From: Gautieria morchelliformis
Taxonomy: Eukaryota > Basidiomycota > Agaricomycetes > Gomphales > Gomphaceae
Direction: 5' to 3'
Length of the DNA stretch: 64,000 nt
Assembly: GCA_015179125.1 (NCBI GenBank)
Contig: WHVA01000434.1
Location: 1-64,000 of the forward strand
Part shown: positions 6,684-63,719 of the stretch, piece by piece
Numbering within the stretch: the first letter of the stretch is position 1
Layout of the letters: the number at the start of each line of letters is the position of its first letter
The notes under the pieces: model-generated
Told to the model about the DNA's origin: nothing
The model's input: only the letters and a program-made list of their open reading frames with translations
Databases searched by the model: none
Program-made: the position numbers and the translations under genes

Positions 6684-9600
6684 TTATGGGGCCTCTCTGC
6701 ACTGCATCCATGAAGTGCCATGCTCAAACCGGCTCAGATCAAGCTCTGTGGACCCCTTCCTGATGACAGCAGTATCCACCGGCCAGCACAAACCTAACTG
6801 AGACCAGGGGGTACCCAAAATAAAAGTTCTGAGGGCGAGTTGAGTATCCAGCCATTTTCTAGCGGTGAGTCGTGTAGAAACCCAGGCCCTGTAGCTGTAC
6901 AAAGGATATTAGGAGATGTCGTCATGTTCCGACAAATAAAGATAACAGCTACTGACTAGCCCGACCTGCGAATGGTGCTGAAATGGCCGCCCCGGTGTTT
7001 GCATTCCACACACGGATCGTCTTGTCGTCAGACCCGGAGACGATGTGCTTGCCGTCATGCGAGAACGCCACCGACGTGACACAGTCAGTGTGGCCTTCGA
7101 ATGGTGCTGAAATGGCCTCCCCGGTGTCGCATTCCACACACGGATCGTCTTGTCATCCGACCCGGAGACGATGCGCTTGCCATCGTGCGAGAACGCCACC
7201 GACGTGACCCTGTCGGTGTGGCCTTCGAATGGTGCTGAAAGGGCCTCCCCGGTGTCTGCATTCCACATACGGATCGTCTCGTCATTAGACCCGGAGACGA
7301 TGCACTTGCCGTCGTTCGAGAACGCCACCGACCTGATGCCCTCGGTGTGGCCTTCTAATGGTGCTGAAATGGCCTCCCCGGTGTCTGCATTCCACACACG
7401 GATCGTGTTATCATCAGACCCGGACACGATGCGCTTGCCGTCGTGCGAGAACGCAACCGACGTGACGTAGTCGGTGTGGCCTTCGAATGGTGCTGAAATA
7501 GCCTGTCCGGTGTCTGCATTCCACACAAGGATCGTGTTGTCGTCAGACCCGGAGACGATCCGCTTGCCGTCGTGCGAGAATGCTACCGATGAGACACCGT
7601 GGTTGTGGCCTACCAAGACGTTTTCAATAGCTGGCCACACCTTTGCTTTCCCTGTCTCTATGCGGAGTAGTCTTGGAAAGTCTGGGAGGTACGCCTGTGA
7701 CACTATGGAACTTTCAGGTGCAAGCGGGAGTGCCGACACAGAGATGAGGAGTGCTCTCCGAGATTACGCTCCAGAAAGTAGCAACAAACTTGCGGGTATC
7801 CCATACGAATGCTGCAGTGTCATTATCCTGAGGTTCATCAGACTCACGTCGGAGCTCATAACAACTCAGGCACTCACCTGACTCCAGTCCATTATTGCCG
7901 AGAACGCTGCTGAAGCATCGGGTACCTGCTTGATCAGACTCAAAACTTCCAGCCAGTAGAGTAGCTTAGTCTCGAAGAACTCCTTGACCTTCGCACTTAT
8001 GCCCGGCGTGAAGGTGGTGGCGCGAACATGGTCCGCCCAAAAACGACAAGAGTAGGACAGTTGTGAGGATATATACCTCTTGGTCCGTGTCTCCAAGTCC
8101 ACAACATCGCTGCGCAGATGCGAAGTTTCAAGCTGACAAATGTTGAAACAAACTCATCCTTCATCACGCGCAAGCATGACAGCGCAAGGCCGACTTGGTG
8201 TAAAGATGTATCGATGTAGTATGCTTTACTCGAGTTCCGATCTGTTATGAAGTCACGAAAAGACGTGTGCAGCAGAGTGATTGTGCGAGAATCGTGAGAA
8301 GGAAGGCTCCGCAGAGCACCCATAGGTCCAACGATATGCTGAACTTCGGTACCCGAGTTGCCTTCCTTGTACAATTTCTGCAGGGCAGACATCGAGAGCG
8401 GTTCTCTGGCAGTCAGAATGCAGCCCATAACCAAGCAAAAACGTTCCTCGACCTTGTCCGTCAAGCCATCGCCATCCCCGAATATCTGCTTGAGGATACC
8501 GAGATACAGATTGTCCATCCCACGGAACTTCTCGTCTAACAGTTCCTCCAGTTGCTCAACAGTATCCCGACCACCCATCCCATCTTCTTTGACAAATAGA
8601 CAAGCCGTGGACGCCCATTGAAAGTGACCTTCAGATTGCTCGGCTAATAATTGACACCAGCCATCGTTGGGCCATTTGCACTCGAGGTCCGTAATAGTTC
8701 ATCTTTCACAAAGCGGGCAACGGCATCGGCAGCTCGGGTCAATATCCTTTAGGGACCTGGAAAGCATGTGCTTCTTCCTAAGAAGGGCGTCCAGTATGTC
8801 TTTTTCGGCACGTGAAGTGATAAGAAAGCGGAGATTAGACGGCAGTTTTGCTGCTTCACCGCTGAGGACAGACAAGAGACCCTTGCGAGATTCCTCGTCT
8901 CCGCTCTCATCCAATGCATCAATAACGATCACCGTCGGTCCAACGGTGGTTAGCCCCAGGGCGGGTTCTAGAATGAACCAGTTGAACTGCACACGAGGCT
9001 CGGATGTGGTCCGAAGGTCTCGCTTCTCCCGAACCACTTTCAATAACGATGCTCTGCGTGCTCGATCCACATCGGCTAGATCACGAGCAATTGTGCTGAA
9101 CACATATTTTGGGGAGTGTTCTGCCTGAAGAGCGTGGTCAAAACAATACGACGATCCGAGACGTTTGAGCCTGTCAAATCCTCGAGCAACCTCGTGCGCA
9201 ATCGCAGATTTGCCGGCACCCGCAATATCGCTCAAGAAAAATATCCCGGGGGTGTCGTCGCTATCCTGGTTGGCCCAATTGGAAATCTCTTCAATAACTT
9301 TCTCGCGAGTACCCGGCAAACAGCCCTTTCCAGGATTTCAACCAGCTCCCTTTGTGTATAGCATGTCATCAAGCAGAACTTCCTCGGCTGGTTGCAAGGG
9401 GTTTTAGGCTCGGGAAAGGCCCAAAGTCAGAGAACTCACAGAAGTCGCTGATGGTATCCAGTACACGTAGTACAGTGTTTTCGGTATGAATGATGGCATG
9501 TTCCTGTAACGCCGACCTGAGATTCTTGAACGTTTCCCGGTATTGGTCGACCTTGCTGTCGACATGCGACACTAGATGTTTCGCGCCTCTTTTCCCTGAA

Positions 9601-48463: not shown

Positions 48464-49013
48464 GGACCGCGGCCATACCATCAGCAACGCACTCGACCAT
48501 CTAATTGATCCGACGCACGTTTGAGCAGCACCGTCGTGCAGGAACCTGTGTCGCTCTTGATTCTTTGCTACTTCTCCATCTTCCCAGGATGTTCCAGCCC
48601 AAACTGGCTTAATCTGGGTGCGGGCTGGGAACAGAAACCAAACGCACATGCGCTGTGCTGTGTCGTCTCAGTTGCAATGCACGTTGTTCCCAAAAATATA
48701 CAGGTTGAGCATTGGGTGTTATCCTGCAGGCAGTCGACGCTATGAGATCCATGTGCTAGCTGTTTTGGGTGCCCCATACCCCGGTCCCCGGATGCTTTTT
48801 TGGCGTCTTGTCATCACTATCCAACGCTTACATAATTCACCGGTGACACCGCCACATGTGATCATGCGCAAGTTAACCGAATCGAGATGACTCAGGGGCA
48901 ATGCGGCACCGCGCGCTGCCGGGATCCGAGAATAGAAACAAAGGCCTGGATTGGAAGATCGGAGCAGGCGCGCGCTTCTCGCGAAGCTTCTGGGCTTCTG
49001 CTTCCTAAGCTGA

Positions 49014-49019
49014 TGCGTG
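49014..49019. other. Left target-site duplication TGCGTG
   Basis: A perfect 6-bp direct repeat of 54135-54140, directly outside the inverted terminal repeat. Confidence 0.9.
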
Positions 49020-49046
49020 TACGGTGCACGAGCGTCCTCAGGTCTA
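49020..49046 (+). repeat. Left terminal inverted repeat
   Basis: 27 bp beginning TACGGTGCACGAGCG and ending GGTCTA. It is the exact reverse complement of 54108-54134. Outside it the two flanks share only the TGCGTG duplication. Confidence 0.95.
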
Positions 49047-49723
49047 AAATTTGAATGACGAGTGATCAAATCACTTTTGTGTACTTCCGAAACTACCGGC
49101 CTGTATTTATTTATAGTTGATGACATGTATCCCTTCGACTAGTCACGTGGCATTTTGAACTCCTTTCATCGACCACCGTGACCGCGCAAAGTCCTACAGC
49201 TCCCACACGGTTACTGAGACATCTGCTTCAGGACGAGGCCTCTCAAGCTTCTGCAGGGCATCAGGGTTAAGTAATAAACCTGCAGCAGCTTGATTAGCAC
49301 CGGCGTCTAGGATGAGCTCGGATTTAGCCCACCATCGTTCGTTCGGCCTGGCCATGCTTGGAAGGCCTCTTCCGCGATTGCTGTACAAGATCAAGCTACA
49401 AAAATATTCTCGGTAAGTAAGGCTGGATGTTACTCCCGAAGTCATCGGCTGATATCCGTTAGTTTCGGACAAAGAGTGCGGCTTTAGTAGCATCGGCGAT
49501 CCTGGTGCGCATGCTTACCAGGAACTACATTGACTCCATTTTTCAGTAGGAAATATCTACTACTGTATTCCAAATGTGAGGGTTATAGTCTGTTGAGATC
49601 GATAGTAAGCTTTTTTTCTCTTGGGCCGTTTCCGTTTTCTCTAATCACCCGAGAACGCAGGCGTCATTTTGATATAAAAACTGTCTGGCTCATCTCATGG
49701 TATCTACAGCCCTGCCATCTGCT
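49047..49723 (-). other. Transposon left subterminal region with a possible small ORF
   Basis: Between the left inverted repeat and the kinase ATG. A minus-strand frame 49493-49194 has protein-like text after an intron-like acceptor region: YREYFCSLILYSNRG, WWAKSELILDAGANQAAAGL and a C-terminal DALQKLERPRPEADV, ending at 49194. I do not recognise it. It could be a third transposon gene or an exon remnant. The segment must also hold the kinase promoter. Confidence 0.35.
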
Positions 49724-52246
49724 ATGACTCGCTGCCTGGGCTGTTCGCAAAACTTCCCTGGCCTTGAGTCTACACAATCCCAGTGCGCAAAGTGCAATAA
49801 GCTGACAGCTGCTGGGTCAGACACCGAAAGAAAAGCTATCGAGGTATGTATTGTTCCGTTAACATATTTTGTGCTGAACGATGCTATACCACAGGCATTT
49901 GCTCAATGTCTAGAATGCGGTGTCGTATATCCATTCCTCAAGGAGAGGCTCTGTGGTGCATGCTGTGATGATGCCAAAACCAGTAAGTGCCGCAATCTTT
50001 AAACAGGCTATATACCTGATAACTCACCAATTCTAAGAGCCGCAAGTTTTCGATGGTTTGTATTGCCGTTATTTCAAGTCTATTTAGTTTTAATGATTGT
50101 TTAGACTCTACGACGGTCAGTGAGTATCTCGCATATAAATCCTCAATACATGAGGCTTCCGCCTCGGAACATCGTCTCAACAAGCTGAAGCGGCCCCTTA
50201 ACGTCAATCTCAAGAAGGCTGGCGAGATTTTGAAGAAGAACGAGGCTTTGAAGAGGTATAATAAGACAGATTCGGTCAGTGTTCGCCTCAGATTTTGGTG
50301 TTATTCGCTTCGAAGAAAACAAGGAAACGGGAAACCACGCCAAGTAAGTGCATGTTGTCTTCCTACGAGAACGAGAAGCATCTTCTAACCCACCAATAGA
50401 TCCAAATTCCAACGGTTGTTCAGAAATTTGAGGCGACGAAGCTTGCGCACACTATGATTAACGAGTTGCTCGTCTATGCAGAAAGCATTTATGACAAGTC
50501 AGGTGGCGTTGATAAGCCGAAGCCGAAGCCGTCTTTTCTTAGGTACGTATACACCTGAAACCTGATCATTTGTACTCTCTGCTTATGGACATGTCTTTAG
50601 AGAGAACGTTGTGTTCGCAGTAGCAAGAACCGTGTCTGATACCTCCTATCTGGATCTTGACACGGCCGAAATGCTTGAATCTACGGAGGCTCTTTATACG
50701 CATCTAGCCACCAATGGGTTGCTCTCTAGTAGGGATTTGAAAGAAAGGACGATAACGATGCAGTTGCGCTTATATCAAGAGGCGTCACAATCAGTAAGTC
50801 TTCGGTCTTTTTTACTAGGTTCGGCAATTGCAACTGTTACCATTAGACAGACAAAGATATGGAAATCATTCGCTCACCGAGCACATCTAGTCATTGTAAT
50901 ATACGCTCAATGGATCTGCGTAAACGTAAAGTTTCTGAAACCACAAATGGTAAGTCGTCCTTGTCAATTGTAAACCGAGCACAAATTTTTTTACTTATTT
51001 ATTACAAGACTCCCCACCCGCAAAGCGATACATTAGTGCCTACCGATCCCGATGTCATAATGCTAATTCATCAACCCCAAAGCTCGTGTACGACAGTTAT
51101 GCTTTCAAGAAGGAATCGTTTGTAGTCACCGCTGAATGCAAGACCATTCACATCGGAGTTGAGGATAGTGAGGTGGAAGCGATCTTAATTCCACAGAATT
51201 GGCAACGGTATATTAATACGGGGAAAAAGGAGGGGGTTTATCTAGGATACAGTTTTGTCAAGTTCGCGTTTACGGTCAGTAACTGCGGCATATCTTTACA
51301 TTCTAACTGACAGTTACCAAACTCAGGGCCACATTGGCGGTAAAGAATATGCAATATTTCAAGATAAAGACATTGGTGGAATAACGGAGAGCACAAATCA
51401 ACGTGACCTTTGCAATGAGCTTCATCTGCTTGCATGGGGGCAATATTTCCTTGATTCCTTTTTTGAGCGAGCAAGAAAGTACGGTGCTAAAAACATTCCA
51501 GGTTTGTTAGGTAATTCTTCAGTGCAAGGTCATGTTCATGACTATGGTCAGATATTAAATGGAATGCAGATGATGCATTCCTCAGGTGCTTGGTTGAGCC
51601 ATTAGCTGAAGTTCCAGCTCATGAGCGGTCTAAACAGAGTTTACTCTTTAGCATGTTCCTAGCCACCCCACTCCTTCCATTTCCAGTCGGACCGGGAGGC
51701 ATGGAACAAAAATTTTCAGGCAATAGTGAGGTTGGTGAAAATACTGACCACGTTGGGATCTGGGTGGATGCGTACACGCACCATACCCTTGTTGATAGTG
51801 AAGGGGAATATCTGTTTGTAGACATTCAAGGTATAGTAAATTACCATGATATTTTAGCATCAATTGATGCTATGACGAGAAGGGTTCAAGTATTCGGACA
51901 AGTGCCTCATACTGTTTGACCCACAGGCCCATACGTATGTCCAACCTCGTTGAACTCGGTGGAATTCATAATGCTAACATGCATTAGCTATGATTATTCT
52001 TCCGGTTTCTGGGACAAAGGACCTCCCGCAATTGTGGCCTTTCTTAAAGAACACAAGTGTAACAAGGTCTGCCGGCAACTAGGGCTTCATAGGGAGATTG
52101 TGCCTCGGAAACAGGTAGATGGCTCAACTACTTCAGCCGACGCGATGCGTGGGAAAAAGGGCAACAATTCCGAACTAGATCCTTTATCAAAACCTGACAC
52201 TGTGCGCAGTGGCAAGTATTTGACGTTAAAGGAGTTGGTGGACTAA
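49724..52246 (+). CDS. Alpha-type protein kinase with N-terminal zinc ribbons (transposon cargo)
   Basis: Predicted atypical Ser/Thr kinase of the alpha-kinase family (relatives: myosin heavy chain kinase, eEF2 kinase). About 12 exons, with introns of about 50 nt, give roughly 660 residues without a stop. Exons 1-2 (49724-49843, 49895-49982) carry two CxxC zinc-ribbon modules (CLGCSQNF, CAKCNK; CLECGVVYPF, CGACCDD). A basic helical region follows (RLNKLKRPLNVNLKKAGEIL). The kinase domain starts near 51,090 (VYDSYAFKKESFVVTAEC) and continues with SFVKFAF, GHIGGKEYAIFQ and NQRDLCNELHLLAWGQYFLD. The hallmark DIQG is at about 51,825, then after a 51-nt intron LILFDPQAHT. The zinc module FLKEHKCNKVC (H-x-C-x3-C) precedes a polar tail ending LKELVD. 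Start chosen as the first ATG giving the zinc ribbon. Targets are unknown. It looks intact. Confidence 0.85.
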
Positions 52247-52381
52247 TACTACTTTGTTAACCCAAGTAGTTTTCTTGGTAGCTTTGTAGATATTTGGGAC
52301 TATTCTAACGATTCTGATTTAATCAGCTTTTTTTTTTCTCTTTTATAACAACACCCATTAATTGTGTAGCTTGATCGGTGC

Positions 52382-53948
52382 CTACATCAGCAGTAGCATG
52401 GCTTGAAAAATGGTCCACACATTGAACATGGTCAGCTTTTGAATACCCAATGAATCATATACTTCCTGAGCATGTACGGCATACTCAACGCTCACAAACC
52501 GAATAAGATCATCACCACCAATTGACACCATTAACTCCCTGACAACACCCTTGTTAACAGGCTGGAGGAGATTCTCAGCGCTATATTCTTTGTGCAATGC
52601 GAAGGCTTCGTTCGGTGATACACCAGAGGGTAGGACCTTGTTCCGATCCTTTCGCACACGATGGTTATTGAAGCGGTCCCGAAGCTCATCTAATTCTTGC
52701 TGGATAAGTTTTGGCCACAGCCATTGTACTAGTTTGCTGACTTTAACATTGAGTAGCGTTAGATTAGAATGCGCCATCCTGCACTTACTATTGCTCTGGG
52801 ATTGAAGAATTATATATACCATTGCCAGCTTCCCAAAAACCTTTAACGTCATCACCCCATTGAAGACGAAGTTGTAGCCAGCCTTGCTCTATCGTTGTGT
52901 TATGAACAAACTTAAGAAACTTGTGTGCAGGTACTTCATTAGTAGAGAGCTCTGGCGAGAAGTATTCCCTATGTTATGTCAGTACAGAGGTTAGATAACA
53001 TGTTTAATCCAATACCGAAGAGCATTTGCCATGCCGAAGACAGTAATAGTTTCCGTACCGCAGTCGGTCGTAGTTTGGATTGGCATCCCTGCCATAGATG
53101 AGAGTGAGCTACGAGTTTAAAGGCTCACTTACCTCCCAACGTCTCAACCAAAGATAAGTACAAGTACGCAATCGCAAGTTTTAAACGGTTGTTTGGGACA
53201 ACCCAAATTCCCAGCCATTTACCTGACCATACATCGCGCAAAGCCCAGACAGGAAATCCAATCTTTGTCAGTTTATCGTGACCATCTCCGCTCCATTCAT
53301 GATGCGGGCCTAAAACTACTAATGCCTGTCGGAAGATTTTTTTCGCTGTTGGCTCTCGAAGCTCAAATCCAACTGGGTCATGTAAACGCATCTCCGATGT
53401 CACATAGTCGCTGATACCAACGGTAAGTGTTTTCCCAGTCAATTATAGATCAGAAAACTACCTACCGAGTCAAATGGATACCATGCTCCCGCGCAATTGC
53501 TTCGACTAATAGCTTTGGGCCTCGCCGGCGGGTTGGGTCTTGTGCCATTTGGTCCAAGACAAGCTGCCGTTTCACTGTGACAGGCAGACTACTAGTAGTT
53601 ATACCACTACTTTTCAGTTCTAAGGCAGACCGTCGACGGTCTACTGTCGCTCTGCTAGATCGGCATGCAATGATAAATCAAGCTAGTATATTAGACAGAT
53701 AACAGCATACCTCATCTTTATACTATGCTCAGCCCAGAGCAGTTTGCTGATCTGCTTGCCGCTTACATGCCCCCTTCGATGATATTCAACCAGGAGCGCG
53801 TTGATTCGCTCATCATCAGGTGCCGCTAAACCACAGTCTTAAGGCGATCTCTATAATTGACAGTAACATAAGACTCACGACAATCCTTATGCTTGTTTCT
53901 CCCCTCGGGATTGCGGCTATAAGGGTTATCTGCAGGAGAATCAGGCAT
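52382..53948 (-). CDS. rve-like DDE integrase/transposase (IS3EU-like)
   Basis: Likely mobilises the 49,020-54,134 unit. Seven exons on the minus strand join cleanly into about 419 residues from ATG 53948 (MPDSPADNPYSRNPEGRN) to TAG at 52384-52382. Introns are GTGAGT-TTAG, GTATGC-CTAG, GTAGGT-TCAG, GTAAGT-GCAG, GTATTG-ATAG and GTAAGT-TCAG. The N-terminal half is basic and helix-turn-helix-like (APDDERINALLVEYHRRGHV, KQISKLLW). The catalytic core has a first Asp in WSGDGHDKL (about residue 163), a second in TTTDCGTE (about 226) and a candidate Glu in NTTIEQGW (about 269), spaced as in rve integrases. The C-terminal half (WLWPKLIQQELDELRDRFNN, SGVSPNEA, DDLIRFVSVEYAVHAQ) is shared with many basidiomycete integrase-core proteins. 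No stop or frameshift was seen. The start lies about 160 bp inside the right inverted repeat. Confidence 0.87.
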
Positions 53949-54107
53949 TGAAAGCCTGAGACAGCGACAAGGACGAAGTAGGGCAGTTGGATGACGTGTC
54001 AGTTGCAAGCGCTTGTGCCACGGGCCTGCCGTCGCGAGTAACTAAGGTACACAATTCAGTATTACTTATGTGAGTATTACATTATCGCAATCTCAGTTCC
54101 GGAAATG

Positions 54108-54134
54108 TAGACCTGAGGACGCTCGTGCACCGTA
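54108..54134 (-). repeat. Right terminal inverted repeat
   Basis: Exact reverse complement of 49020-49046. It ends CACCGTA and is followed directly by TGCGTG. Confidence 0.95.
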
Positions 54135-54140
54135 TGCGTG
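54135..54140. other. Right target-site duplication TGCGTG
   Basis: Identical to 49014-49019. Confidence 0.9.
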
Positions 54141-54566
54141 CCTTGTGGCGCGTGTGCCCCTTGACGTGAATCGAGCCTAAATGGGTATGGCAATATATCT
54201 GATCGCCGATCGATCACTTCGATCACGATCACGATCTGCCATGTCAGGTGGCGTGCGCGCTCTTAATGGCGGTACACGTTGTATGTACGTCACTGGTGCG
54301 GACAGTACCCAGCTCGATGGCACCCCGTTCTAGGCGGAGAGTGGAGGGTCGACAAACGGCAATAATCAGTACCTTTGAGCACTCACAAATCAGTACTCGA
54401 AAATATCATTAAATGAGTACCAAAAATGAGTGCTTTTGAGCACTGAATTTCAGATACTAAAAAAAATGCAAGTATGTGAATAAAAGAAAAACTGATCGCC
54501 CTCTTCACTCCGCTCCAAAATCCCACTCGTATGTCGAAGGACAAGGATTTTGAGTGGCGTGTGAGC
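54141..54566. other. No gene seen
   Basis: Spacer between the transposon and the right arm. It has a GATCACGATCACGATC-type short repeat at about 54,215-54,235 and two AGTACC/AGTACT...GAGCACT phrases near 54,370-54,460. Confidence 0.5.
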
Positions 54567-59820: not shown

Positions 59821-62785
59821 GTCCAAGGTATGATTCAAACGCCAGCGGTCTCCCAGTTCATCTCATGTACATGGTTTGCTTGATTCTAGGTCCATCCTTA
59901 CGCAAAGATGGCATGGTCTATCTTGTCTAGTGTGTCAAAGGTAGATCTATCCCATGCACCGGCTGAGTTGACATATCTGACATCTGGCCTAGGCGATAAT
60001 TGCTCAGAGGGACCGGGACAATAGCATCAATGCACTGGCGGAACTCATTGGAGACACATATGTGTTCGTCCACTTGGGAGAGCCATTGAAGAAGATGGAA
60101 TCGCAGAAGCCGAGTATCTTAGCCTTGGTGCAACAGACATTAGAGTGCAGTTACTTTGTCCATGCCTACACAAAAGAAAAAGGTTTCTGTATGTTGAATC
60201 ACTGTCAAGTGGACATAGCTGACGATCTTTGTTCAGGGAAAAGAGGTGCAAAACATCTAGTGTCGCATGTCGACAGCCATGTCGACCATTACCGGGAAAC
60301 GTTCAAGAATCTCAGGTCGGCGTTACAGGGACACGACATCATTCATACCGAAATCACTGTGCTATGTGTTCTGGATGCCATTGGCGACCTCTGTGAGTTT
60401 GCTGACTTTGAGCCTTTCCCGAGCCTAAAACCCCTTGCAACCAGCCGAGGAAGTTCTGCTTGATGACATGCTATACACAAAGGGAGCTGGTTGCAATCCT
60501 GGAAAGGGCTGTTTGCCGGGTACTCGCGAGAAGGTTATTGAAGAGCTTTCCAATTGGGCCAACCAGGATAGCGATGACACCCCCCGGATGTTTTTCTTGA
60601 ACGATATTGCGGGCACCGGCAAATCTGCGATTGCGCATGAGGTCGCTCGACGATTTGACAGGCTCAACCATCTCGGATCGTCATATTCTTTTGACGGCGC
60701 TCTTCAGGCAGAACACTCCCCACAATATGTGTTCAGCACAATTGCTTGTGATCTAGCCGATCTGGATCGAGCACGCAGAGCATCGTTATTGAAAGTGGTT
60801 CAGGAGAAGCGAGACCTTCGGACCACATCCGAGCCTTGTGTGCAGTTCAATTGGTTCATTCTAGAACCCGCCCTGGGGCTAACCACCATTGGACCAACGG
60901 TGATCGTTATTGATGCATTGGATGAGAGCGGAGACAAGGAATCTCGCAAGGGTCTCTTGTCTGTCCTCGGCGGTGAAGCAGCAAAACTGCCATCTAATCT
61001 CCACTTTCTTATCACTTCACGTGCCGAAAAAGACATACTGGACGCCCTTCTTAGGAAGAAGCACGTGCTTTCCAGGTCCCTAAAGGATATTGACCCGAAC
61101 CCTGCCGATGCCGTTGCCCGCTTTGTGAAAGATGAACTAGGTAATATTACAGACCTCGAGTGCAAATGGCCTAACAATGGCTGATGTCAATTATTAGCCG
61201 AGCAATCTGAAGGTCACTTTCAATGGGCGTCCACGGCTTGTCGATTTGTCAAAGGAGATGGGATGGGTGGTTGGGATACTGTTGAGCAACTGGAGGAACT
61301 GTTAGATGAGAAGTTCCGTGGGATGGACAATCTGTATCTCGGTATCCTCAAGCAGATATTCGGGGATAGCGATGGCTTGATGGACAACGTCGAGGAACAT
61401 TTTTGCTTGGTGATGGGCTGCATTCTGACTGCCAGAGAACCGCTCTCGATGTCTGCCCTGCAGAAATTGTACAGGGAAGGCAACTCGGGTACCGAGGTTC
61501 AACATATTGTTGGATGTATGGGTGCTCTGCTTGGCCTTCCTTCTCAAGAATCTGGCACAATCACTCTGCTGCACATGTCTTTTCGTGACTTCTTGACGAC
61601 AGATCGCAACTCGAATAAAGCATACTACATCGATACATCTTTACACCATGTCGGCCTTGCGCTCTCATGCCTGTGCATGATGACGGATGAGCTTTGTTTC
61701 AACATTTGTCAGCTTGAAACTTCGCATCTGTGCAATGACGATGTTGTGGACTTGGAGACACGGACGAAGAGGTATATATCTCCACAACTGTCCTACTCTT
61801 GCCGTTTTTGGGCGGACCATGTTCGCGCCACCACCTTTACGCCGGGTATAAGTGCAAAGGTCAAGGAGTTCTTTGAGACTAAGCTACTCTACTGGCTGGA
61901 AGTTTTGAGTCTGATCAATCAGGTACCCAATGCTTCAGCAGCGCTCTCGGCAATAATGGACTGGAGTCAGGTGAGTGCCTGAGTTGTTATGAGCTCCGAT
62001 GTGAGTCTGATGAACCTCAGGATAGTGACACTGCAGCATTCATACAGGACACCCGCAAGTTTGTTGCTACTTTCTGGAGCGTAATCTCGGAAAGCACTCC
62101 TCATCTCTATGTGTCAGCACTCCCACTTGCACCTGGAAGTTCCATAGTGTCCAGACCTACCTCCCAGACTTTCCAAGACTACTCCGTATAGAGACATGGG
62201 AACTAAAGGTGTGGCCAGCTATTGAAAACGTCTTGGTAGGCCACAACCACGGCGTATCATCGGTAGCATTCTCGCCCAACGGCAAGCGCATCGTCTCCGG
62301 GTCTGATGACAACACGATCCGTGTGTGGAATGCAGACACCGGGGAGGCCATTTGAGCACCATTCGAAGGCCACACCGACTGCGTGACGTCGGTGGCGTTC
62401 TCGCACGACAGCAAGCGCATCATCTCCGGGTCTGATGACAGCACGATCTGTGTGTGGAATGCAGACACCGGGGAGGCCATTTCAGCACCATTCGAAGGCC
62501 GCACCGACGGCATCAGATCGGTGGCGTTCTCACACGACGGCAAGTGCATCGTCTCCGGGTCTAATGACGAGACAATCCGTATGTGGAATGCCAATACCGG
62601 GAAGGCCCTTTCAGCACCATTCGAAGGCCACACCGACTGGGTCAGGTCGGTGGTGTTCTCACACGACGGCAAGCGCATCGTCTCTGGGTCTCGTGACAAC
62701 ATGACCCATGTGTGGAATGCAGACACCGGGGAGGCCATTTCTGCACCATTTGAAGGCCACACCGACTGCCTCACGTCGGTGGTGT

Positions 62786-63719
62786 TAGAATAAATGGATA
62801 GCTATATCAAACACTATTCTAAGGTCTATACAATCGTCTAACTGAGCTAACATCTGGGAGAAATAATCCATGCACCAGTAGCAGTGCCTGCCCTGGAAAG
62901 CAGGCACCTGGGCCCTGGTCAGAAGAAATATTGCTATGGGACTAATAGACCCATACAGGGACATCGGACACAATGGAGATTACAGTACACTGTCCTATCT
63001 ATGTACGTACTGAATAGCTACCTCAGGAGAGAGGTACAGAGATGGCAAATGCCTTGCCAAGGCTGCTGTAGGCACACAGCACAGGACACACATGATTTCT
63101 TTTCTATTCTATTCCCCTGACCAGCTCCACTGATTACAAGCTGTATTACATGTTGAAAGGGGCTTTGTACATTTCTCCAAGGTCCCAGCTTAGATACTTG
63201 TCAGTAGGACAAGTATCCCCATCATTGTTCCTGCTCCACAGCTGTATGCAGCCTGTGGAGCATTTCCACATTATCCTGACCCATTTTGTCACTATCTTGA
63301 ACACTGGTACTCGCTACTGTTTTAGTATAAGTAGCTACCATAAATGTACGAACAAAACATCCAGAATATCATCCAGAAATATCCATGATTCACTGTTTCA
63401 CCTCCTGAAGTAACTGTAGACTTGTTTGATAGCTACAGAGCTTATTTCTTGATAGATTTCTCTAATTATTTGTTGAGAGTCTACTATAACTGGCTACACT
63501 ATACTGTTCCAAAAGCGAAAGCTTCGGACCCCTTTTTCCTCTGTTCTCACCTGTTTCTTCGTCGACTCGGTCACGTGACCTACATCAATCAGTGACGACT
63601 CGCTCCACAGAGCTTAGTCAGCTCACGCATATACTGTGCACAGGGGTGCACGAAGAGTCCCAACTCCCTGAGTCATCAAATATATCATTTCTGATATATC
63701 TAATCTATTATTCCTAAAA
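62786..63719. mobile_element. 934-bp hAT-like element inserted in the WD40 domain
   Basis: The imperfect inverted ends TAGAATAAATGGATAG...TATATCA and (reverse complement) TTTTAGGAATAATAGATTAG...TATATCA are flanked by GGTGGTGT and GGTGGCGT, an 8-bp duplication with one later mismatch. The interrupted WD40 repeat resumes right after it. It has no transposase frame. Its right third is repeated at 31,400-31,690. Confidence 0.7.

What the first reader, a model, noticed from the sequence alone, without database searches (positions are those of the whole stretch)
49020..54134. Intact DNA transposon that carries an alpha-type protein kinase
Seen directly: 27-bp perfect inverted ends, a perfect 6-bp target duplication, and two convergent genes that both splice into stop-free frames, one an rve-like DDE transposase and one a zinc-ribbon alpha-kinase. 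Known: alpha-kinases (eEF2K/MHCK type) are host signalling enzymes. I know of no described DNA transposon family that carries one, although I cannot search. Inference: the kinase may help the element, for example by acting on host factors or controlling transposition. The integrity of both genes and the perfect ends suggest recent or current activity.
Basis: partly seen in the sequence, partly recalled or inferred. Interest (0 to 1): 0.95.

Follow-up and report, generated by a model that had tools for sequence, protein, structure and literature searches.

The report
Mushroom jumping gene carrying protein kinase
This is a real, apparently intact cut-and-paste transposon from a fungus that carries its own transposase and an unusual alpha-type protein kinase; a 2025 paper mentions such kinase-bearing elements in passing, and here most alpha-kinase genes found in this fungus turn out to sit beside such a transposase.

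Summary
Window 49020-54134 has perfect 27-bp inverted ends (TACGG..CCGTA), a perfect 6-bp duplication, and two convergent, stop-free genes: a 644-aa zinc-ribbon alpha-kinase (12 exons) and a 419-aa DDE transposase (7 exons). Three related empty sites carry one uninterrupted TGCGTG, direct evidence of insertion. Four more copies carry both genes, each damaged.

The host is Gautieria morchelliformis. There, 48 of 65 alpha-kinase loci lie within 6 kb of a related transposase (0.5 expected), 42 convergent; in other mushrooms 7 of 21 kinase relatives are neighbours of one. Both genes show purifying selection against one copy (0.35 and 0.36 of neutral); for the kinase it is weaker or absent against two decayed copies.

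It is not a new kind. Ends, duplication and opposed alpha-kinase match the IS3EU superfamily, for which Kojima 2025 (PMC12730594) notes this gene pair in TET-carrying families. Added here: a TET-free mushroom family, the genome-wide link, selection on the kinase, a beta-grasp-like domain, and apparent loss of the usual ATP lysine, which leaves catalysis unproven.

The parts
49014..49019 (.). left target-site duplication TGCGTG
   Evidence: single copy in three related empty sites
49020..49046 (+). left terminal inverted repeat, 27 bp, starts TACGG
49020..54134 (.). complete IS3EU-type element, 5115 bp
49724..52246 (+). alpha-kinase gene, 12 exons (49724-49843, 49895-49982, 50038-50055, 50105-50343, 50400-50542, 50601-50793, 50847-50949, 51009-51274, 51327-51501, 51552-51830, 51883-51934, 51988-52246), 644 aa
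   Evidence: PF02816 E 6.3e-16, 59.4 bits against a cut-off of 21.3 (on the earlier 638-aa model without the 18-bp microexon)
49724..49982 (+). first two exons, with two CxxC..CxxC zinc-ribbon-like motifs (Cys 4, 7, 21, 24 and 45, 48, 60, 63)
51552..51934 (+). two exons that encode the alpha-kinase catalytic loop: DIQ at the end of 51552-51830, GFKYSDKCLILFDPQAHT in 51883-51934 (D539 and D554 of the protein)
52382..53948 (-). DDE transposase gene, 7 exons (53948-53879, 53825-53711, 53654-53466, 53410-53133, 53088-53016, 52968-52789, 52736-52382), 419 aa; D167/D170, D226, E269
   Evidence: PF24764 below its cut-off (18 of 26 bits); integrase fold of a 92%-identical relative
54108..54134 (-). 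right terminal inverted repeat, 27 bp
54135..54140 (.). right target-site duplication TGCGTG

Best explanation
The element is a two-gene member of the IS3EU superfamily of DNA transposons in the fungus Gautieria morchelliformis. Shown: it inserted by a mechanism that duplicates 6 bp of target, and its ends are the same as those of other copies. Strongly inferred from fold and conserved D, D, E residues: the integrase-like transposase binds the TACGG..CCGTA ends, cuts the element out and joins it to staggered target cuts. Supported by conservation and by the substitution pattern against one other copy: the convergent alpha-kinase-like gene is not accidental cargo but an old second component of this mushroom IS3EU lineage. 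Inferred, not shown: the protein is targeted by its two N-terminal zinc ribbons and a beta-grasp-like middle domain, and phosphorylates or binds a nuclear target (the transposase, chromatin or a repair factor), which raises transposition or counters silencing. I put about 0.5 on that functional step; the confidence below is for the rest.
Against: 17 of 65 kinase loci have no related transposase within 6 kb and 19 of 69 transposase loci no kinase, so neither gene is obligatory, or the searches miss divergent partners. 12 of 21 kinase relatives had no partner among the 120 transposases listed of 175. Against C600 the kinase shows no constraint (48 nonsynonymous, 45.7 expected), though that copy is 5'-truncated with stops; against C113 it is weaker (49 against 57.6). 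Trees of kinase and transposase could not be shown to match: Mantel r 0.58, P 0.0009 with 11 pairs, but r 0.28, P 0.10 after one of two near-identical Gautieria pairs is dropped. The canonical beta-3 lysine seems absent, so catalysis is uncertain. Of 10 copies with both ends, 6 show duplications, of 5 to 7 bp, and 4 none. PF24764 stays below its cut-off. No expression data.
Confidence: 0.85

Rival explanations
1. The kinase is a passive passenger, captured from the host and carried along without benefit.
For: 19 of 69 transposase loci lack a detected kinase; all four other copies of the window's family that hold both genes are broken in the kinase, and no constraint is seen against C600.
Against: Kinase and transposase are neighbours in several genera, and the kinase shows purifying selection like the transposase against C365. 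The same pairing is stated for TET+ IS3EU families of rusts and Tuber (PMC12730594).
Confidence: 0.1
2. The protein has the alpha-kinase fold but is a pseudokinase or ATP-binding scaffold: it regulates the transposase or a host complex by binding, not by phosphorylation.
For: The strand expected to hold the ATP lysine of MHCK A reads YAI[F/L]Q in most rows; Gln is kept in 21 of 22 rows and no Lys stands at either likely register. In the window kinase, P0001, P0003 and P0006 and in P0128 Pfam matches only the C-terminal part of the domain. One alpha-kinase of the same genome without a detected transposase partner, C415, reads YVAK.
Against: The two catalytic-loop Asp, the Gln of DIQG, the zinc ligands and a Lys at the glycine-rich strand (20 of 22; other alpha-kinases have Arg there, by recall) are kept; a WNK-like move of the lysine is possible (WNK recalled). 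The register in the N-lobe was not resolved.
Confidence: 0.3
3. The transposase belongs to another rve-type superfamily (Ginger1/2, Polinton/Maverick) and the ends only look like IS3EU.
For: The fold is shared by all DDE integrases, and no Repbase tree could be run.
Against: TACGG..CCGTA ends, 6-bp duplication and opposed alpha-kinase match IS3EU as described; Ginger has 4-5 bp duplications; Polintons share 6 bp but are far larger (recalled).
Confidence: 0.04
4. Two unrelated neighbouring genes happen to lie between chance inverted repeats.
For: None found.
Against: 0 of 100 shuffles give the repeat; empty sites; other copies with both genes.
Confidence: 0.005

Closest known systems
IS3EU superfamily (Repbase; Kojima 2023 PMC10045372, Kojima 2025 PMC12730594)
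   Same: TA..TA termini, TAYGG..CCRTA in the TET+ rust families; 6-bp duplications; IS3/IS481-like DDE transposase; alpha-kinase gene opposed to the transposase.
   Different: The published statement on the kinase covers TET+ families (rusts and Tuber), with a TET/JBP gene between the two; the element here is a mushroom family with nothing between the two genes. Duplications of 5 and 7 bp also occur. No direct sequence comparison with Repbase was possible.
GingerRoot (described in PMC10045372)
   Same: 6-bp duplications, mostly TA..TA ends; grouped with IS3EU in that paper.
   Different: Described from a clubmoss; no alpha-kinase mentioned in the passages seen.
Styx of Zymoseptoria (PMC10853768)
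   Same: Its authors derive it from an IS3EU element that encoded two proteins, one a DDE transposase.
   Different: No alpha-kinase is named in the passages seen.
Alpha-kinases MHCK A, TRPM7, eEF2K (PF02816)
   Different: Zinc ribbons and a beta-grasp-like domain in front; Gln or a hydrophobic residue where MHCK A has its ATP lysine.
TET/JBP-carrying transposons of fungi (KDZ and others; PMC12730594)
   Same: A DNA transposon that carries an enzyme besides the transposase.
   Different: A dioxygenase proposed to help escape methylation-based silencing, not a kinase.

Membership tests
IS3EU superfamily | TA..TA termini; TAYGG..CCRTA in the TET+ rust families | tested here: met
   TACGG..CCGTA with 27 perfect bp; definition from PMC12730594 and PMC10045372
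IS3EU superfamily | target-site duplications, usually 6 bp | tested here: met
   6 bp in the window and L014; 5 bp in L012, L018, L024; 7 bp in L009; none recognised in L010, L011, L013, L015 (the script tested 6 bp, the 5 and 7 are read by eye from its flanks)
IS3EU superfamily | DDE integrase-type transposase without an N-terminal HHCC motif | tested here: met
   fold; D, D, E columns invariant or nearly so in 42 sequences; residues 1-150 hold a single Cys
IS3EU superfamily | transposase groups with IS3EU references in a tree | not testable with these tools
   Repbase sequences are not held
kinase-bearing fungal IS3EU | alpha-kinase and transposase in opposite orientations inside the ends | tested here: met
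   42 of 48 genomic pairs convergent, 5 divergent, 1 in the same direction
TET+ IS3EU | TET/JBP gene between transposase and kinase | tested here: not met
   the two genes end 135 bp apart (52246 and 52382), with no room for a third
alpha-kinase family PF02816 | profile match above the gathering score | tested here: met
   59.4 bits, cut-off 21.3, C-terminal part of the domain only
alpha-kinase family PF02816 | alpha-kinase fold | tested here: met
   [not shown]
alpha-kinase family PF02816 | catalytic-loop Asp pair (D756 and D766 of MHCK A) and zinc ligands | tested here: met
   window D539, D554, H581, C583, C587
active alpha-kinase | ATP-binding beta-3 lysine (K645 of MHCK A; its role recalled) | tested here: inconclusive
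   no Lys at either likely register; N-lobe not alignable by sequence
Ginger1/Ginger2 | 4-5 bp target duplications | tested here: not met
   6 bp with empty sites in the window, although three other copies show 5 bp; definition

The most novel reading that the evidence does not exclude
The alpha-kinase is a second core gene of fungal IS3EU transposons, and most of the alpha-kinase repertoire of mushrooms (and probably the reported rust expansion) is transposon property, not host signalling. In the mushroom lineage the kinase has moved its ATP lysine, in the manner of WNK kinases, and is aimed by zinc ribbons and a beta-grasp domain at chromatin or the transposase, as a phosphorylation-based counterpart of the TET/JBP anti-silencing enzymes.
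Probability: 0.2. Interest if true: 0.8.

Novelty: new member of a known kind. Interest (0 to 1): 0.5.

Why it matters
Counts of alpha-kinases in fungal genomes are easily read as signs of expanded signalling. PMC4469406 calls the family highly expanded in the rusts (passage), and PMC5295586 has a table row for PF02816 among protein-modification domains (2.34, 3.50E-02; passage). In this mushroom genome 48 of 65 alpha-kinase loci sit beside a related transposase, so such counts may largely measure transposons. A compact two-gene element with intact ends and two conserved enzymes also makes a direct question testable: why would a DNA transposon need a protein kinase?

Tried and rejected
Chance repeats: rejected. 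A splice model of the kinase without the 18-bp microexon and a different sixth intron of the transposase were replaced after comparison with deposited relatives. The family scan, the protein searches and the first dN/dS table (kinase 0.19, transposase 0.24 against C365) used those earlier models. Plain dN/dS was judged unsafe because introns differ less (2.9%) than synonymous sites (about 10%), a sign of CpG mutation; one search replaces it. Co-phylogeny: inconclusive. The right end of the more distant C366/C622 family was not resolved, and no ends were found for C2. N-lobe alignment to solved alpha-kinases failed by sequence. A weak hit of the zinc region to a TET-like CXXC chain (4hp1, E 0.76; its identity recalled) was set aside as chance. 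Rfam: no match in the window at gathering scores. In some searches I entered 115 of the 142 transposase rows; the 27 left out all lie within 300 bp of an entered locus on the same strand. Rows were merged into loci by distance, which can split one locus in two (C727). The transposase hits used for neighbours are the 120 listed of 175, and one search scored only the 7994 candidates that shared most words. Literature: eight searches; the search for alpha-kinase with IS3EU found one paper, PMC12730594.
Full report
Observation. The 27-bp arms at 49020-49046 and 54108-54134 are identical, and TGCGTG flanks both sides. The flanks belong to a repeat. Of 46 genomic rows for the joined flanks, 36 run across the insertion point with at least 25 bases on each side (5 of them second pieces of split matches; 2 other rows are the window's own flanks), and the three that I fetched read a single TGCGTG with no element. 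This is direct evidence of insertion with a 6-bp duplication.

Other copies. An 18-bp end occurs 26 times in the 122-Mb genome. I fetched 17 stretches that cover the 24 sites outside the window. Besides the window, C365, C860, C113 and C600 carry both genes; C365 and C860 have nearly the same flanks and look like duplicates of one locus. Each of the four is damaged in at least one gene; the window copy is intact. Shorter elements of about 2.2 and 3.1 kb with the same ends (C125, C145, C162, C781, C240) show no kinase and only a small piece like the transposase N-terminus; the remaining stretches, with one end or with a 5.0-kb insert (C892), show no kinase either. Of 10 copies with both ends, the window included, duplications are 6 bp in 2 (window, L014), 5 bp in 3 (L012, L018, L024), 7 bp in 1 (L009) and not recognised in 4 (L010, L011, L013, L015).

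Genome-wide link. Of 46 PF02816 loci, 35 lie within 6 kb of one of 69 transposase loci, 29 of them convergent, against 0.33 expected. Adding loci found with the kinase protein gives 48 of 65, with 42 convergent, 5 divergent and 1 in the same direction; 50 of 69 transposase loci have a kinase. The transposase rows range from 33 to 99% identity to the window's, so the pairing spans several families. A second family (C332) has both genes inside TACGG..CCGTA ends with a 5-bp duplication, its kinase probably cut at the 5' end.

Other fungi. A kinase profile found 21 proteins, one of them a member of the profile. Nine share the contig length of a listed transposase relative: six have consecutive locus tags, one shares a 6.1-kb contig, and two (Mycena floridula, Cerioporus) share only a long contig. 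The other 12 had no partner among the 120 transposases listed of 175. Trees were not shown to match.

Selection. With mutation type and CpG context kept, the kinase of the window against C365 has 30 nonsynonymous changes where 48.0 are expected, the transposase 21 where 32.3 are expected; 0 of 2000 simulations were as low for either. Against C113 the kinase is weaker (49 against 57.6, share of simulations as low 0.024) and against the truncated C600 it shows none (48 against 45.7, 0.78), while the transposase stays constrained (8 against 13.1, 0.012; 19 against 26.2, 0.005).

Catalysis. The catalytic-loop Asp pair and the zinc ligands are kept. The strand expected to hold the ATP lysine reads YAI[F/L]Q in most rows, with Gln in 21 of 22, and a Lys stands in the glycine-rich strand in 20 of 22. 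One alpha-kinase elsewhere in the genome, C415, reads YVAK. The register could not be fixed, so both a relocated lysine and a pseudokinase remain open.

Literature. PMC12730594 (abstract, section 4.1, figure legends and passages seen) gives TAYGG..CCRTA ends and 6-bp duplications for TET+ rust IS3EU, and says that all TET+ IS3EU families hold a TET/JBP gene between opposed transposase and alpha-kinase genes. PMC10045372 (passages) describes IS3EU by TA..TA ends and usually 6-bp duplications. The window element fits this group; no tree with its references could be run. Rust alpha-kinase expansion is mentioned in PMC4469406, and PMC5295586 has a table row for the family (passages); that these are transposon genes is my inference.

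Verdict. A real, intact IS3EU-type transposon with a conserved alpha-kinase-like gene: a new member of a known but barely described kind. The function of the kinase is open and testable.

Noticed in passing
G000 contigs C194, C270, C235, C559, C654: Five kinase-transposase pairs are divergent instead of convergent, which suggests a second gene arrangement or a second lineage of these elements.
   Followed up: no
G000 C365 and C860 copies (L013, L015): Both ends of these copies carry the 115 bp of the window's right end, so their inverted repeats are far longer; end conversion is likely.
   Followed up: partly
L024 1079-6086: An element with the same 27-bp ends (one mismatch) and a 5-bp duplication contains what looks by eye like a Harbinger-type transposase frame, perhaps a nested insertion.
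   Followed up: no
window 6965-7611 and 62238-62786: Two arrays of a 129-bp repeat, 88 and 84% matching within each, on opposite strands and alike in consensus, in or next to large frames that look by eye like NACHT/WD40 proteins.
   Followed up: no
window 48862-49019 and 54135-54269: The element sits in a repeat family with tens of relatives in the genome; the family was not classified.
   Followed up: no
L058 (C332:35000-44800): Two mirror-image copies of a related kinase-transposase element lie side by side within about 9 kb.
   Followed up: partly
[not shown]
   Followed up: no
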